Below are positions 5,973 through 43,513 of a stretch of 64,000 nt of DNA, in pieces. The DNA is from Arabidopsis thaliana. Taxonomy: Eukaryota > Streptophyta > Magnoliopsida > Brassicales > Brassicaceae. The stretch covers positions 29,435,971 to 29,499,970 of the forward strand of contig NC_003070.9 of the NCBI RefSeq assembly GCF_000001735.4, read 5' to 3'. The translations under genes and the position numbers were made by a program. Each line of letters starts with the position of its first letter. Position 1 is the stretch's first letter. The notes below the pieces were generated by a model that was given only the letters and a program-made list of their open reading frames with translations, ran no database searches and was not told the DNA's origin.

Positions 5973-7955
5973 TGTGAAGTGAAAAAAATGAAAATGTTTA
6001 CTCAAAGACAGTGAGGGATTCTTTTTATATTTTTAATATGATATATTAAGATTGATAAGGTTCGGGTACTTCAATCTATGTTCTGTAAATCCAAAAAAAT
6101 ATACATATGAATATTGGATATCAGCAAACAAAAAAAAAAACTCCCAATTGCATGGAACAAAAGGAATTTCGCATTTCTTAATATATGTAAACATCTTTGA
6201 TAGAACCTTGCACCTAATTTCCTCAACTAACTTGGTCTTAAGAGCTACCAAATCCACCACTCTCTATATTATACTATATATAGGGGGGTTATACATCAAA
6301 ATTTCTGTTACGATATGTTAAATAAGTGGAATTCCGCACTTACCATCAATACTGTACATGTTTCATTCATGAGAGAATTTCACACAAAAATCAAATATGT
6401 AAAAAACGCAGCAAATTAAATAAACACATTACCGTCGAGATATTTCATTGGAAAAGAATTTTTTTATTTATTTTATTAGTGGCGACAAGATCAGACTTAT
6501 CATTAGTAAAACTATTCGATGTATAGAATAAGATTAGAATCTACAGCGGCCAGAACAAAGGCTTCATTATTATCCACTCGAATCCAAGTTTTGTAATTCC
6601 AAGTCGACATTTCGTTTTCCAGAAGTTGATAGCTATCCATCTTTTGTCCCCTCATGTTGAATTTATTTTTTTTATTTTTTTTTTATTTTTTTTTTGTCAA
6701 ACTAGATATATAGAACCGCATTGCATTGAAATTAAAAATATAAATCCATTTTAAGACTAGACTTGTGTCTTGACTCTTGTCACTCAAAACGCCAAAGATG
6801 ACCTGCGTAGCTATGATTGAAATCGTAATAATAATAAACCCGAACACTAGTTTTTCCGTCATTCCACTAATTTGGTAATTACATCGACATTAGTTTCATA
6901 AAGTACTATGATAAAGTTTTCAAAAGTTAAACAAATTCCAAAACATGTTTGTAAAACGAAAATAGAAACTGCTTTAGACGACAAAGTAATATGATCTGCC
7001 ATAAGTCATAGAATTAACTTTGAGAAAAGTATTATCGTAGGAAAACGATGGAAAGGCACAAATCATAAATGATCAATTGGAGAGAATGTGATGGACCATA
7101 CTATATCAAAGAAAAAGGGGCTTTTGCAAAATTCTCAAAGGAATAATTATGAAATGAATAGTAAATTTAATTAGTTAACGTAGAAATTCCATGTGACTTC
7201 TTTTAACATTGGTGGGGCTCCTCTTCTCTCTTTATTTCACGTCAAAATATTATAAAAGGCATTGTCATATATCACAATATATCACCCGCTCTTAAGTTCC
7301 TCATGTGGATCTCTTATAACTTACAAACCCCTTTCTAACTACACTATCCGATCATTAATGGTTCTTCTTTAACACTCAAGATGAAATTTTTGAGTGAGTC
7401 GAATTGAAAGATTTTAATTAAAACGATTGTATTGAATAAAAAATAGTTTGTTTTTGGATAGATAGATATATCGGCGAATGAATTTTTAACCGATTTGGGT
7501 GTGACGGTTGTTTCTTTAAATGTGTAGTTGTTTGTAGGGACAAATTTATACGAATGAAAACTTAGGGAACATGTGAGAGTATTGAAGAAAGAGATAATGA
7601 CTAATGAGACATATCGTTGAGTGATATGTATATGTCGAGTTTACAAGTGATATAGATGGGTGCCAATATCCTCATGCTTTAATCTTTTTTGATCATTAAT
7701 TGTTATCTCTCTCGAATAATTGCATAATTGCGTTGTGACGCATTGATGACCATGACATGACCGGATGAGCCATTTCCTCATTTATGAAGAAAAAAAGCCT
7801 TCGGACCTGGTGGGCTTCTTAGTGGCCCAATTTCGAAAAATTAATAAATTGGCTTCAATTAACGAAGAAAAAGTCAATAATTTGGGCCCATTGTGTAGAT
7901 ACGGGCTCCCTCCAATAAGAAGGTAAACATTTTTGTTTCAACACACAAAACGAAA

Positions 7956-8040
7956 TGGGGTGAGAGAGGCTCGAACTCTCGACCTCAGGATCACTCAGTA
8001 GCTATGAGACCTACGCGCTAGCCAACTGCGCCACCACCCC
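7956..8040 (-). tRNA. Elongator tRNA-Met (anticodon CAT), with intron
   Basis: On the minus strand the sequence folds as a full cloverleaf. The acceptor arm is GGGGTGG paired with TCACCCC, with discriminator A at 7956. The D stem is GCGC/GCGC, the anticodon loop starts CTCATA, and the T arm is GAGAG-TTCGAGC-CTCTC. Variable loop is AGGTC. An 11-nt insertion (GCTACTGAGTG) directly 3' of the base after the anticodon is the expected tRNA intron, leaving a 74-nt mature body. Introns are usual in plant elongator tRNA-Met, and the T-arm differs from initiator tRNA-Met. The A box (TGGCGCAGTTGG) and B box (GAGTTCGAGCC) are internal Pol III promoter parts. CCA is not encoded. Confidence 0.97.
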
Positions 8041-9191
8041 AGATACCATAATTCGAACCTTATTTTTTATATATCCTTCAAAGTGTTTTTTTTCTTTTTT
8101 TAGTTTTGAATCTTGATTGTTTGCGAATTTGGTTTTGAAATGGAAAATGTTCAATCAAAGAAAACTGAAAATATGTCAAAACGTTGCAGTTTTGTGGTTT
8201 ATAAGCCGATTAAGACCAGTTGGAATTCTCAATTTGCCTAAAAGGTCGAAAGCAATTATTGTCGTAATAAAAAGTTTAATTCATCGATGACGTTATTGTA
8301 TTGAGACAACAAAATATTTGAAAGCAGCTAAGCATCACAGGAAGTCCACGTGGAAGAAGTTGAGACAGTTCATTGGAATTTCGGATTTCCCAATTTTCTT
8401 CTTACAGTTACAGCTCTCTCTCTCTTTCTCCTCTCTAAACTTGCTTCCAACTGTCTCTTCTCTTTGCCACGTTTCCTGGCCCCTACTTTGCTTTACTTGT
8501 CTCCATATTTCGTTTTCTTAATCAAACTAAAAACTATCTCAAAACAACAATATTTAATTTGCATTTTGAAAAAATATTCAAAGACTTTCAAAAGTCTATT
8601 TGATTAAGCATTGTTGGTTGTTTGGGCTTATTTGTTTAAGTATAGCTAAGAAACAGTTTTCTTTGGGTTTAAAACAAAGTTTTAAATGGATATATCAAAT
8701 ATATATCTTGGACTTCAAATGCCAAAAAAAAATTATTTGTCTTCTTGGACGATATTTGAATAAGCAGGCATGGATAATTGTTGGTACATATATATATATA
8801 TATATATATATTTGTTAAAACATTTAAACAATATATTACTAGCTTGTTTTTCATAAATAGTTTATAAAGCCTTTTCAAGCCTTTCTTTCTACAGTTTCTC
8901 TTTTTAATGTCTTTTTGTTTGTAAATAAGAAACAATTACACTTATAAATATTGAGTTTGTGTAATCTTTATGCATAAAATACAACTTATACAGGGTTGGG
9001 CATAGTGAGAAAAAGAAAAGTGGAAAAGGGGATTTAAAATAATGATGAGGAATAAGGATGGTCGTGCGTCTATGAAAGCTGCTTTGCAATAAGCTCATCT
9101 CATGTAATCTTTTACAACATGTTACATGTATATATATTCCTTTCATCTTAATATGCAACTAGACACACATACATATGCACGGCAAGGACAC

Positions 9192-37075: not shown

Positions 37076-38584
<1,509 letters not shown>

Positions 38585-38816
38585 GAAAAAATGTTATTTA
38601 ATACTTCAATTTACAAAAAATGGCCAAAGTAACCGTGAACTCGAGAAATGGCCGTTTTAACTCTCAACAAAAAGTTGACTTCTGTTTTAAACTTTCAAGT
38701 TTGCGTTGACTCGGTCTAATTAACCACCGTTAAAACTCCTTCTAACAGCGTAATTGACAGCCGTTTTAATCCGTTAAGCATCTGTTATTATAGTCTTACG
38801 ACCTCGTTTTCGTGCT
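38585..38816 (+). repeat. Left terminal inverted repeat of the MULE
   Basis: Pairs with 43295-43513 in reverse complement with small gaps. It likely contains the transposase promoter, because the ATG is only 128 bp inside the repeat's inner edge. Confidence 0.85.
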
Positions 38817-38943
38817 AAAGAGAAATCAAAATCGAGAATAGAAATTCTCAAAACAAAATCAATTACCCTAAACCCAAATCGAAACCTAATCCTGCCCCCA
38901 AAATCAAAATCGAAACCCTAATTGCTTCAATTCGTTTTCTGAA

Positions 38944-41900
38944 ATGCCATTAGTTAGAAAGAATGGCGTCGTTATGAGGATTGGATCTCCAATGCTTCAC
39001 GAATCAGAGAATTTGGTGGGAGATGGAGTTGAAGCACCACCGCGAGGAGAAAGAGATGAAATTGGAGAAGAAGTTGGGGGTGAAACGAATGTGGTATCTG
39101 AGTCTTGTGGCGGAGAAGACGGAGCACAAGATGCAGCTAAACCAACGCCGGAAAGAGAAGCAGATCGAATTGGAGAAAAAGCTCGAGGTCAAGCGAATGT
39201 AGTATCAAATGTTGATGTGGCAAATGTGGCCGAAGTTCGTTCTCCACTTAGGCGAAGTAAACGAAGGCAAATCAGATTGGAAGAAGAAGCTCACGATGCA
39301 GTTGAACCAATGCCGGAAGGAGAAGCAAATCAAATTGGAGAAGAAGCTCGAGGTCAGTCCGTTGATGTGGCAGATGCAACCGCAGTTTGTTCTCCACTTA
39401 GGCGAAGTAAACGAAGGCAAAATAGATTGGAAGAGGAAGCTGATGTTGCAGTTGAAGAATCAACTCGTCGTGAAATTGGACAAGAGGAAGAGGAAGCTTT
39501 AGGTGAAACGTCTTGTGGCGGAGAAGAGGAAGCTCACGATGAAGCTCAAGAATCAGGCGTTGATGTGACAGATGCAGTCGAAGTTCGTGCTCCACTTAGA
39601 CGAAGTAAACGAAGGAGAATCAGAGATGAAGAAGAGGAGGATTTAGAGGCTGAAGTTCCTGCTCTTGATGAAGACGATGACTGTGCAGTCCAAGGAGATG
39701 AAGACTGCGATGAGGTTGATGATGCAGTAGATACTAATAGAGAAGAAGATGATACTGCTGGATTAGGTGTCGAAGAAGATGGTAACTTAGACATGGAAAG
39801 AGATTTTCCAGAGGCTAATGGAGAAGAAGAAGCTAGTGACAATGACAGGGTAGATGATATATGGGATGAAGACAAGATTCCAGATCCTTTGTCCTCTGAT
39901 GATGAAGATGATGATAGAGTAGAGGCAGCTCGAAATGATCTTGGTGATCCTGAGATTTTACTAGCATTGGAGAAGACTTATAACTCTCCTGAAGATTTCA
40001 AGCTTGCTCTTTTGATGTATTCCCTAAAGACAAGGTATGACATTAAACTTTATAATTCTGAAGCTATGGTTGTTGCTGCTAAGTGTGTGTATGTTAGTGA
40101 TGAGGGTGTTGAATGTCCGTGCAGAGTCCGTTGCTCTTATGAGAAGAGAAAACATAAGATGCAAATACGAACTTATTACAATGAGCATACTTGTGTGAGG
40201 TCAGGACATTCGAAGATGTTAAAGGTGTCATCTATTGGGTTTTTGTTTGAAGAAAGGTTGAGAGTGAATCCAAAACTCACTAAACATGAGATGGTTGCTG
40301 AGATCTTAAGAGAATACAAGTTGGAAGTGACTCCAGACCAATGTGCTAAGGCAAAGACAAAAGTTTTGAGAGCTAGACGTGCTAGTCATGATTCTCATTT
40401 TGCTAGGATATGGGATTATCAAGCAGAGGTGTTATTGCGGAATCCGGGGACAGAGTTCAACATAGAGACAGTTGCAGGAGCAGTGATTGGAAGCAAGCAG
40501 AGATTTTACCGGTTATATATTTGTTTTCAAGCTCAAAGGGAGTCATGGAAACAAACTTGCAGACCTGTAATAGGGATAGATGGAGCTTTTCTGAAATGGG
40601 ACATAAAAGGACATCTATTAGCCACAGTTGGAAGAGATGGTGACAATCGAATTGTCCGTATTGCTTGGTCTGTAGTCGAGATAGAAAATGATGACAATTG
40701 GGACTGGTTCTTGAGATAGCTCTCTACAAGCTTGGGGCTATGCGAAATGACTGATCTAGCAATCATTTCAGATAAACAATCTGTTAGTCTCTATTCTATA
40801 AGATTCCCTTCATATATCTACTGTAATTTGAGATAGACAATCATACTAAACTTGTGTTTTTTTTGTTGTTTTGCAGGGTTTAGTCAAGGCTATCCATACC
40901 ATTCTTCCGCAAGCTGAGCATCGACAATGTTCAAAACACATCATGGATAATTGGAAAAGGGACAACCACGACATTGAGCTACAACGTCTATTTTGGAAGA
41001 TAGCACGCAGCTACACCGTATAAGAGTTCAATAATTACCATGCAGACTTAAAAAGGTACAATATCCAAGCCTACACGTCTCTCCAACTTACTAGTCCGAT
41101 TACATGGTTTAGAGCATTCTTTAGAACCGGTACATGTTGCAACGACAATCTCAACAATCTGAGTGAGTCATTCAATAGAACCATTAGACAAGCTAGGCGG
41201 AAACCACTATTAGATCTTCTAGAGGATATTAGGAGGCAATGCATGGTTAGGACAGCTAAAAGGTTTATCATTGCTGACAGGTGCAAAACAAAGTTCACAC
41301 CAAGAGCTCATGCTGAGATTGAGAAGATGATTGCTGGGGTCCAGAATACACAGAGATACATGTCCAGGGATAATTTGCATGAAATCTATGTCAATGGAGT
41401 TGGCTACTTTGTTGATATGGACTTAAAGACATGCGGCTGCAGGAAATGGCAAATGGTTGGGATCCCATGTGTTCATGCAACATGTGTGATAATAGGGAAA
41501 AAAAGAAGGTTGAAAGCTATGTGAACGACTACTACACAAGAAATAGGTGGCGAGAAACATATTTCCGTGGTATTAGGCCTGTCCAAGGGATGCCTTTGTG
41601 TGGTCGATTGAATAGGCTGCCTGTCTTGCCACCACCATGGAGAAGAGGCAATACCGGAAGGCCAAGCAATTATGCAAGAAGGAAAGGAAGAAATGAAGTT
41701 GCCTCTTCCTCAAATCCGAACAAAATGTCAAGGGAAAAGAGGATCATGACATGCTCTAACTGCTTGCAAGAAGGGCACAACAAGAAATCATGCAAAAATG
41801 CTACTGTTTTAAGTCCACCAAAGAGACCAAGAGGTCGACCAAGGATAAATGAGGTTTGTATATCTTTCATTTCTATTTTCAAAAATTCTGTTTCAAAAAC

Positions 41901-42302
41901 TGATTGTAATGTTTGTATTAGGAACCACAAGGGCATGTAGAAGGATCAGATGGACATGATAATGGCTCACAAGGGCAGGGTAATGTGTTACAAGGGCAGG
42001 AAAATATGTTACAAGGACAGAATAATGTGTCACAAGGGCAGGATAATGGCTCACAAGGGCAGAACAATGGATCACAAGGGCAGAACAATGGCTCACAAGG
42101 GCAGAACAATGTATCACAAACACAAAGCCAAAGAGGAAGAGGTCGTGGAACACAAAGACAAAGGGGAACAACTCGTGGAGCACAAAGACAGAGGGGAAGA
42201 GGTCGTGGAACATCACAAGTGTCTGAACAACCACAAGGAGAAGCACAACCGCAAGGACTTGCTGGACTTGCACCATGGTTTGAATGTTCTCGTGGAACAT
42301 GA
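38944..42302 (+). pseudogene. MuDR-type transposase gene, inactivated
   Basis: Exons by homology-guided reading: 38944-40782, 40877-41853, 41922-42302. The N-terminal third is acidic with a thrice-repeated PLRRSKRR block. Next come a MuDR N-terminal domain (about residues 340-430), then the MULE catalytic core (GIDGAFLKWD onward). A SWIM zinc finger (CGC...CVH, about 41443-41485), a CCHC knuckle (CSNCLQEGHNKKSC, 41755-41796) and a Gln/Asn/Gly-rich tail follow. Three lesions break it: TAG at 40717-40719 within the core (after DWFLR), TAA at 41021-41023 (after ARSYTV), and a one-base frame change in the A run near 41503-41509. Both stops interrupt otherwise continuous homology. Transposase function is lost unless supplied in trans. 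Confidence 0.88.
41965..42120 (+). repeat. 21-24 bp coding minisatellite in the transposase tail
   Basis: About seven copies of a unit like TCACAAGGGCAGAACAAT plus a variable GGC/GGA/GTG codon, encoding SQGQNN-type repeats. Unit length is a multiple of three, so expansion keeps the frame. The exact last copies (42050-42115) suggest recent slippage. Confidence 0.9.
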
Positions 42303-42623
42303 TATGCTAGTCTCATGTTTGTTTTTGTTGTTTGAACTTGTCTTTATGACATATGTCTTTCTTTCTTTATGACATTCTCGGTTTGTTTTTGTTGTTTGAA
42401 CTTGTCTTTATGACATAATCTAAGTCTTGGTTTCTTATTGTTGTTTGCACTTGTCTCTCTATATGATTAGCTTAGTCTCAGTTTTAAGAAGTTGACCTTT
42501 TCTTTCAAATGAAATTCATTACCATTACCAAAGCTACATGTCATTACATAGTAAAAGCATAACCAAACACAAACTAAACAACAAAGACATCACATTCAAA
42601 CTAAGCTCCCATTCGATTACACA
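42303..42623. other. Convergent 3' flanks inside the MULE
   Basis: 321 bp between the transposase stop and the stop of the convergent small gene. It contains a 64-bp direct repeat: GTTTGTTTTTGTTGTTTGAA followed by CTTGTCTTTATGACATA, at 42317 and 42381, and a weaker third copy near 42430. Probably holds both 3' UTRs. Confidence 0.75.
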
Positions 42624-43192
42624 CTAATAACCAAGAACAAATTTTTGGTTTTTTTTCTTATAGAACATTGATATTACAATTGCAATCACACTAAAACAAA
42701 GGCACACCAAGCACACTTTCGTCATCTTTTTCCATCTCTGAATTTCTCTTTTGCTCCACATTCCATCTTCTTTCAACTCTATCATTAGCTCCTTTAAGTT
42801 TGCAATTTCAACTGCAACCTCAGCTTTTGCATTGATTATCTCGTTATCAATGCTGGAGATTTTGGGTAGAGCATCTACAACCTCTTCATACATACACTCC
42901 TCCACCCATTTGAACAAATGATCCTGCAATTCCATCTCAAGCTTTTACTGACCAAACACAAAAAACATCACATTCTCATATCAAATCTACTTACATCTTT
43001 ACAGCTTTTGCACCGAAAGAAAGGCCTTCCAGGGTTCTTAGTCGTGCTCGATGTAAACATGACGACTTCGAGCCCACATTTACACTTAACAGGAAACCCA
43101 CGACTCTTGAAACCTCCAGCTTCAACATTTGAAATCATTCCTGAATTGCAGCCTCCACTTTCACCACTCGAATTCCTTGAGTTGCAGCTCAT
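42624..43192 (-). CDS. GRF-type zinc-finger protein with coiled coil and C-terminal membrane anchor, 165 aa
   Basis: Two exons, 42995-43192 and 42624-42923, joined by a 71-bp GT-AG intron; no stop or frameshift. The first 66 residues hold a GRF-type zinc finger: Cys37, Cys39 (KCKCG), then NPGRPFFRCKSC with Cys61 and Cys64. GRF fingers bind nucleic acid in known proteins (NEIL3, APE2, TOP3A). Residues 67-125 are helical and charged, likely a coiled coil. About 136-154 (VCLVCLCFSVIAIVISMFY) is a single hydrophobic segment followed by KKK, as in tail-anchored proteins. It starts about 100 bp inside the right TIR and is transcribed towards the transposase, so it belongs to the element. Similar small GRF proteins are common in plant genomes (family knowledge). 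Function unknown. Confidence 0.85.
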
Positions 43193-43294
43193 AATGCAGA
43201 TTTGATCGAAAAATTTGAGAGAGAATAATTTTTAGGGTTTGGGTTTTGATTTGGGGGTTTTTCAGAGGTTTCGTCGACTTTGAGGTCTGTTGAT

Positions 43295-43513
43295 AGCACA
43301 AAACGTCGTCGTATCACCTTAACGGATGTTCTGTAACGGCTGTTAATTACGCTGTTAGAAGAATTTTTAACGGTGGTTTATTAGGCCGAGTCAACGCAAA
43401 CTTAAAAGTTAAAACAGAAGTCAACTTTTTGTTGAGAGTTAAAACGGTCATTTCACGAGTTCACGGTTAATTTGGCCATTTTTTGTAAGTTGAGGTATTA
43501 AATAACATTTTTC
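43295..43513 (-). repeat. Right terminal inverted repeat of the MULE
   Basis: Reverse-complement partner of 38585-38816. It probably holds the promoter of the GRF-finger gene. Confidence 0.85.

What the first reader, a model, noticed from the sequence alone, without database searches (positions are those of the whole stretch)
38585..43513. Two-gene convergent MULE: decayed transposase opposite an intact GRF-finger/membrane-anchor gene
The layout mirrors maize MuDR, where mudrA (transposase) and mudrB are convergently transcribed from promoters in the TIRs. Here the second gene encodes a GRF zinc finger, a coiled coil and a C-terminal membrane anchor, unrelated in appearance to what is described for mudrB. 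It is intact while the transposase carries two stops and a frame change. A conserved partner in a transposon suggests a role in transposition, nuclear import or anti-silencing. The membrane anchor is odd for such a role. The layout is seen; the helper role is inference.
Basis: partly seen in the sequence, partly recalled or inferred. Interest (0 to 1): 0.75.

Follow-up and report, generated by a model that had tools for sequence, protein, structure and literature searches.

The report
Transposon carrying a membrane-anchored helper gene
A broken jumping gene in a plant genome carries, facing its transposase gene, a small gene for a zinc-finger protein with a membrane tail; related elements in the same genome keep this pair together and preserve the small gene by selection, so it probably helps the element move or survive.

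Summary
A 4.9-kb Mutator-like element (about 38587-43512) has 192/195-bp terminal inverted repeats, a broken MURA-type transposase, and a convergent, intact two-exon gene for a 165-aa GRF zinc-ribbon / coil / C-terminal membrane-anchor protein. The genome is Arabidopsis thaliana (contig lengths, recalled).

In that genome 32 of 57 GRF loci have a MULE transposase as nearest transposase within 7 kb, convergent; 0 are divergent, 3 same-strand, 22 have none (local-shift control: mean 1.13 convergent, maximum 6 of 57). Inverted repeats flank both genes in 13 of 16 loci tested that held both. Ten intact copies are under purifying selection (omega 0.30, finger 0.14; transposase 0.11). The two genes co-diverged (Mantel r 0.75).

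New: a second MULE family (transposase 23-30% identical) carries a GRF gene 39-60% identical that is nearer, at silent sites, to those of L031 and L010 than the window's is: the gene apparently passed between transposon lineages. So it is probably a generic helper. The membrane-tether mechanism is inference.

Against: two close relatives lack the gene; the youngest pairs show no detectable selection; only this genome was searched.

The parts
38587..38778 (+). left terminal inverted repeat (arm 192 bp; outermost bases degenerate)
   Evidence: (91% identical to the right arm)
38944..40716 (+). transposase, first open stretch (591 codons): acidic N-terminal repeats, DBD_Tnp_Mut at about 39976-40167, start of the MULE domain at about 40567-40716; the stop that follows is not in the sister copy
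40720..41523 (+). transposase, middle: rest of exon 1, intron roughly 40790-40876, exon 2 with a stop not in the sister copy, SWIM finger at about 41405-41479, one-base frame change near 41500 not in the sister copy
   Evidence: intron limits read from the sequence and the alignment breaks
41524..42302 (+). transposase C-terminus: CCHC-like knuckle and, after a probable intron, a Gln/Gly region made of 21-bp repeats
   Evidence: knuckle read by eye; 41524-41850 has no Pfam match
42995..43192 (-). GRF gene exon 1: Ser-rich N-terminus and most of the GRF zinc ribbon
42924..42994 (-). GRF gene intron (GTAAGT...CAG), just before HLFKWVE; an intron is placed there in the related models too
42624..42923 (-). 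GRF gene exon 2: HLFKWVE end of the finger, coil, hydrophobic anchor (residues about 136-155, 42716-42657), short basic tail, stop
43318..43512 (-). right terminal inverted repeat (arm 195 bp, GGGGAAAAATG just at its outer end); GRF start codon 125 bp inside it, transposase start codon 165 bp inside the left one

Best explanation
This is an old, now inactive MuDR-like MULE of the two-gene convergent kind. Each gene starts just inside one TIR. The second gene encodes an element-borne accessory protein: a GRF zinc ribbon, a coil, and a single hydrophobic helix near the C-terminus, the layout of a tail-anchored protein with its finger on the cytosolic or nucleoplasmic face. SHOWN: the layout, co-divergence with the transposase, purifying selection across copies, a conserved finger and a recurrent anchor. 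STRONGLY SUGGESTED: passage of the gene between two distantly related MULE families. INFERRED: that it helps the element spread, and does so generically rather than through one transposase or one TIR, because it also sits beside a transposase only 23-30% identical. Most likely mechanism (inference): the finger binds single-stranded or branched nucleic acid of the element (excised ends or gap DNA), as the GRF fingers of NEIL3 do, and the anchor and coil hold it in oligomers at the inner nuclear membrane / ER, favouring completion of reinsertion, as mudrB is needed for Mu insertion in maize.
For: Convergent neighbour in 32 of 57 GRF loci, 0 divergent; control mean 1.13, maximum 6, in 2000 local shifts; 24 of 29 loci with E<1e-9. 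TIRs enclose both genes in 13 of the 16 examined loci where both were detected (tally of both genes), and 8 of 16 TIR elements have a perfect 9-bp TSD. 12 of the 14 best-scoring rows of the C-terminal transposase search carry the gene. Omega 0.303 over 10 intact copies, LRT 132.7; finger 0.138, anchor and tail 0.455 (LRT 10.6). Three of five path-independent pairs constrained, one-sided p at most 9.6e-8. GRF and transposase distances correlate, r 0.75 over 11 loci and 0.62 over 14, each 0 of 5000 permutations. Anchor in all 10 intact models and in the divergent L011 model. Gene exchange: 35 group 1 pairs have GRF 43-75% / transposase 62-87% identity; 18 group 1-group 2 pairs have GRF 39-60% / transposase 23-30%. 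GRF dS of group 2 to L031 is 0.62-0.64 (WIN/L001 to L031: 0.86-0.88) and to L010 0.82-0.88 (WIN/L001: 0.96-0.98); a transposase clade of L010, L031 and group 2 is rejected, p-AU 3e-142. Finger closest to NEIL3 GRF among solved chains; [quoted passage not shown] mudrB is required for Mu insertion (PMC8224964, passages).
Against: No expression, localisation or transposition data. The two youngest pairs show no significant constraint: WIN-L001 (4 silent, 7 replacement, p 0.23) and L027-L039 (omega 0.76-0.78, p 0.32-0.36); other recent pairs are also loose (L024-L038 0.86, L022-L027 0.83, L026-L039 0.73). L034 and L037 have TIRs, transposase and perfect TSDs without the gene, and most of the 235 transposase loci have no GRF neighbour, so MULEs in general do not need it. 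Omega of GRF is about three times that of the transposase. The GRF tree does not reject a single group 1 clade (p-AU 0.16, few well-supported branches). The L020 model shows no anchor. Single-finger matches to NEIL3 are weak (i-E 0.96-4.5). The membrane location is read from hydropathy only.
Confidence: 0.5

Rival explanations
1. Anti-silencing factor: the ER-anchored finger binds element RNA (or proteins) where secondary siRNAs are made on membrane-bound polysomes, and so protects the element from host silencing, a functional analogue of VANC of VANDAL elements but by another route.
For: Arabidopsis MULEs are known to carry sequence-specific anti-silencing genes (VANC; PMC5735166, passages). 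A generic target would explain sharing between MULE lineages. The membrane anchor fits an ER site (siRNA production on ER polysomes: recalled).
Against: The GRF fingers whose activity I saw described bind single-stranded or forked DNA. Similarity to VANC was not tested. No expression or methylation data.
Confidence: 0.25
2. Self-serving or host-derived passenger: a captured gene with a function of its own (or a host benefit) that merely travels with MULEs, as in Pack-MULEs or ULP-carrying MULEs.
For: Elements without it exist (L034, L037) and one TIR element keeps GRF alone (L038, 1.7 kb, perfect TSD). [quoted passage not shown] Recent pairs show little constraint.
Against: Long co-divergence with the transposase, a recurrent convergent place under the opposite TIR, constraint across the diverged copies, and presence in another MULE family.
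Confidence: 0.2
3. Chance neighbourhood: GRF genes and MULEs are both dense near centromeres.
For: Both are common in TE-rich regions (recalled); same-strand neighbours (3) are no more than the control gives (2.2).
Against: Local-shift control gives 1.13 convergent neighbours (maximum 6) against 32; TIRs enclose both genes.
Confidence: 0.01

Closest known systems
MuDR of maize (mudrA / mudrB)
   Same: about 200-bp TIRs that serve as promoters of a transposase gene and a second gene, transcribed in opposite directions (PMC8224964 and PMC9168764, passages)
   Different: Second gene here is a GRF zinc ribbon with a C-terminal anchor; mudrB is described as a novel protein needed for integration. 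Sequence relation to mudrB not tested.
Abermu MULEs (barley and other plants), ORFR
   Same: in type II, a second ORF opposite the transposase, between it and the 3' TIR; Ka/Ks below 1; higher Ka and Ks than the transposase (PMC9168764, passages and section 23)
   Different: No domain is named for ORFR in the passages seen, and ORFRs of distant plants show no similarity; here the partner is a recognisable GRF/anchor protein kept across diverged elements and shared between MULE lineages.
VANDAL / Hiun elements (vanA, vanB, vanC) of Arabidopsis
   Same: MULEs with accessory genes besides the transposase, one of them anti-silencing (PMC5735166, passages)
   Different: That paper names DUF1985 and DUF287 for VANC; 'GRF' and 'zinc' do not occur in its main text.
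GRF zinc-finger proteins NEIL3, APE2, TOP3
   Same: GRF zinc ribbon with an N-x-G-R-x-F/Y-x-x-C ... F-x-W core, seen against NEIL3
   Different: Those are DNA repair or recombination enzymes; here the finger stands with a coil and a membrane anchor, and the conserved fourth ligand is probably His (HLFKW) rather than Cys.

Membership tests
Mutator-like elements (MULE), TIR type | MURA-type transposase (MuDR DNA-binding, MULE and SWIM domains) | tested here: met
   SWIM above cut-off; DBD_Tnp_Mut and MULE below cut-off in the broken window copy; group 1 relatives at 62-87% identity among themselves, sister L001 96%
Mutator-like elements (MULE), TIR type | long terminal inverted repeats | tested here: met
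   192/195 bp, 91%
Mutator-like elements (MULE), TIR type | 9-bp target-site duplication | tested here: inconclusive
   Not recognisable in the window copy (6 of 9); perfect in 8 of 16 TIR elements tested
MuDR-like two-gene convergent MULE (what it is laid out like) | second gene convergent, starting beside the other TIR | tested here: met
MuDR-like two-gene convergent MULE (what it is laid out like) | second gene homologous to mudrB | not tested
GRF zinc-finger family (PF06839) | profile match above the curated cut-off | tested here: met
   28.6 against 25.9 bits; 12 of 12 aligned members match at E<=1, the threshold used
GRF zinc-finger family (PF06839) | single-stranded DNA binding | not testable with these tools
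   activity described for NEIL3, inferred here
Tail-anchored membrane proteins | single hydrophobic helix close to the C-end, no N-terminal signal | tested here: met
   mean hydropathy over 17 residues 2.6-3.3, 13-17 residues from the C-end in all 10 intact models; absence of an N-terminal signal judged by eye
Tail-anchored membrane proteins | post-translational insertion into ER, nuclear or organelle membrane | not testable with these tools
   needs localisation experiments

The most novel reading that the evidence does not exclude
Plant MULEs share an exchangeable, membrane-anchored helper: a tail-anchored GRF-finger protein that binds element nucleic acid at the nuclear envelope or ER and works with unrelated transposases, so transposition or escape from silencing in these elements has a membrane-bound step.
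Probability: 0.25. Interest if true: 0.85.

Novelty: new variant of a known kind. Interest (0 to 1): 0.6.

Why it matters
What the second genes of MULEs do (mudrB, vanB, ORFR) is largely open. Here is a second gene with recognisable domains, in a model plant genome, under measurable selection, and apparently passed between transposon lineages. That makes a concrete, testable claim: a generic DNA-transposon helper that sits in a membrane.

Tried and rejected
Rejected: that the window's own intact-versus-broken contrast shows selection (target size alone explains it; one search gives no significance). Rejected: chance neighbourhood. Considered: a host GRF gene beside a MULE; rejected because TIR arms lie outside the GRF gene in 13 loci.

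Led nowhere: PMC searches for GRF finger with MULE or transposon terms. One search listed 20 of 192 papers, none with all three terms. Of the papers holding a GRF term together with a transposon term, I opened passages of four for this purpose (PMC6293580, PMC5413045, PMC10359422, PMC13148073): three name GRF zinc-finger genes in gene lists, and PMC10359422 lists GRF-type domains beside (retro)transposon domains among enriched families; none of these passages describes the pair. The other hits (3; 6 more) I saw as listings only. Yu et al. 2000 on Arabidopsis MULEs is not held, so priority there cannot be excluded. Structure prediction was not run: its rule admits window proteins and loci from named tools, and the spliced protein is not a letter-for-letter translation. 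No other plant genome was searched; I saw no collection of them among the tools.

Dropped or imperfect rows: the L041 comparisons (my exon cut was one codon out of register). The L041 row and the L018, L024, L030, L038 and L041 rows include some intron codons or stops as X. Automatic GRF models of L019, L024, L026, L030 and L038 are poor and were left out of the omega set, with L011, L020 and L023 left out as too distant; the models were chosen for likeness to the window protein and the 10 rows for being intact, which favours constraint and a shared intron somewhat. 87 of the 88 rows were typed into; the one missed lies inside a locus already counted. The 145 rows and the listed rows (151 matches, not all listed) gave 295 entries. 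Not all 88 planned stretches were fetched: 31 of the 57 GRF loci were read as DNA, the rest only as positions. Group 2 copies (L022, L026, L027, L039, L040, L041 and probably more) are one multicopy family, so the 32 convergent loci are not 32 independent events; the pair at C2:576062 has its transposase 6.6 kb away and may be a wrong partner.
Full report
WHAT IS THERE. The window lies at contig 1, 29435971-29499970, of a 119.66-Mb, 7-contig genome. At 38587-43512 two inverted arms of 192 and 195 bp (91% identical) enclose two genes. On the + strand runs a MURA-type transposase in pieces. Its two stops and one-base frame change are absent from the sister copy L001 on the same contig (96% identical), which is broken elsewhere. 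On the - strand lies a two-exon gene, 43192-42995 and 42923-42624, 165 codons, intact. The transposase start codon lies 165 bp inside the left TIR and the GRF start codon 125 bp inside the right TIR. The genes meet tail to tail about 0.3 kb apart. The copy is old by its decay: no clear TSD.

THE SMALL PROTEIN. It matches the GRF zinc ribbon. Across 12 aligned copies the invariant residues are M1, C37, C39, G40, S48, N53, R56, C61, H68, L69 and F70 (window numbering). The likely ligands are therefore CxC, C and H (inference); the window's own C64 is not conserved. A coil and a hydrophobic segment 13-17 residues from the C-end follow in each of the 10 intact models; 6 of the 10 end in LGY. The divergent L011 and L023 models also end in a hydrophobic stretch, the L020 model does not. 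The best solved relatives are the GRF fingers of NEIL3 (E 4.3e-4 and 6.1e-4 for the whole chains, each single finger weak).

IS THE PAIR REAL? Two own-genome searches for GRF (19 and 88 rows) merge to 57 loci. Transposase positions came from two pieces of the window transposase and from PF10551, 235 loci in all. The nearest transposase within 7 kb is convergent for 32 of 57, divergent for 0, same-strand for 3, none for 22. Random local shifts of 20-300 kb give 1.13 convergent, 1.13 divergent and 2.2 same-strand on average, at most 6 convergent in 2000 rounds. Among the 29 best GRF loci (E<1e-9), 24 are convergent and 5 have none. The searches score only the best candidates, so counts are lower bounds, and copies of one family are not independent. 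More telling is the anatomy. Of 23 loci examined, 16 held detectable matches to both genes (tally); in 13 of these (WIN, L001, L010, L011, L015, L016, L021, L024, L028, L030, L031, L032, L033) TIR arms of 139-355 bp lie outside both genes. None was found for L020, L023 and L027, the last cut short by its stretch. Eight of 16 TIR elements tested show perfect 9-bp TSDs. Of the 14 best-scoring rows of the C-terminal transposase search (57-100% identity), 12 carry the gene; L037 has none, and L034 only a very weak possible remnant (i-E 0.2).

SELECTION. A codon model (M0, own implementation) on 141 codons of 10 intact copies gives omega 0.303, with omega 1 rejected at LRT 132.7; finger 0.138, coil 0.465, anchor and tail 0.455. 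The transposase over 407 codons of 10 copies gives 0.106. Over 162 GRF pairs with dS below 2 the median omega is 0.34, the maximum 1.03. Of five path-independent pairs, three show constraint (one-sided p at most 9.6e-8) and the two youngest, WIN-L001 and L027-L039, do not. So selection acted while the family spread; whether it acts on the window copy now cannot be said.

CO-INHERITANCE AND EXCHANGE. Over 11 window-type loci, GRF and transposase distances correlate at r 0.75 (14 loci with L001, L011 and L020 added: 0.62), each reached by 0 of 5000 permutations. A second, multicopy MULE family (group 2: L027, L039, L041 and relatives L022, L026, L040; no long TIR found in the stretches of L027, L040 and L041, which may not reach the ends) has a transposase 23-30% identical to group 1 that groups with that of L020 (100/100 support, with long branches flagged). 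It carries a convergent GRF gene 39-60% identical to group 1. At silent sites this gene differs from that of L031 by 0.62-0.64, while WIN and L001 differ from L031 by 0.86-0.88; for L010 the figures are 0.82-0.88 and 0.96-0.98. The DNA match of L027 to L010 runs from the inner edge of L010's TIR to just past the stop codon of its GRF gene. Transposase data reject L010, L031 and group 2 as one clade (p-AU 3e-142). The GRF tree puts group 2 among the window-type genes but does not reject a separate window-type clade (p-AU 0.16). The simplest reading is that the gene passed between transposon lineages; the direction is inferred. A third type (L020, L023) has the GRF gene on the same strand as the transposase-like frames; same-strand neighbours as a whole are no more than the control gives.

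HOW IT MAY WORK. The gene's presence beside an unrelated transposase argues for a generic job rather than a fit to one transposase or one TIR. [quoted passage not shown] With coil and anchor, the protein would present such a finger on a membrane facing the nucleoplasm or cytosol. I favour a MURB-like aid to reinsertion at the nuclear envelope, and hold anti-silencing at the ER as the main rival. Neither step is shown.

WHAT IS KNOWN. Second genes opposite the transposase are known in MuDR (PMC8224964, passages) and Abermu, where ORFR has no named domain in the passages I saw (PMC9168764, passages and section 23). A survey of MULEs lists plant-mobile-domain ORFs, often antisense, and 'GRF' does not occur in its main text (PMC6446971, passages). 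A grapevine survey mentions ULP1-like regions in MULEs in either orientation and has no 'GRF' (PMC2528002, passages). Searches of the open PMC library showed me no paper that describes GRF fingers as MULE genes; most hits were seen as listings, four as passages, and subscription papers, notably Yu et al. 2000, could not be read. Hence: a known kind of element with what appears to be a new kind of partner gene.

Noticed in passing
L038:108-1814: A 1.7-kb TIR element with a perfect 9-bp TSD that holds the GRF gene alone, without transposase (its first exon looks frame-shifted).
   Followed up: partly
L002, L003 and L004-L009: Short derivatives that share the window element's TIRs: two keep only part of the transposase 5' region, and about eleven places of roughly 0.4-0.45 kb are inverted TIR pairs at 70-84% identity to the window's, MITE-like.
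   Followed up: partly
L027:1-4500: Several copies, about 745 bp apart, of a stretch beside the GRF gene of a group 2 element, reminiscent of the tandem repeats described for VANC targets.
   Followed up: no
L018:6282-6740 and L022:8996-9640: Ulp1/C48 protease domains lie within 5 kb of GRF genes.
   Followed up: no
L012:4941-5186, L013:4941-5186, L014:4593-5042: GRF matches of a more distant type with no MULE transposase within 7 kb; what carries them is unclear.
   Followed up: no
window 37465-37863: The element sits about 0.7 kb upstream of what looks like a tau-class glutathione transferase gene start (read by eye).
   Followed up: no
window 7955-8041: ARAGORN reports a selenocysteine tRNA, most likely a false call in a plant.
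   Followed up: no
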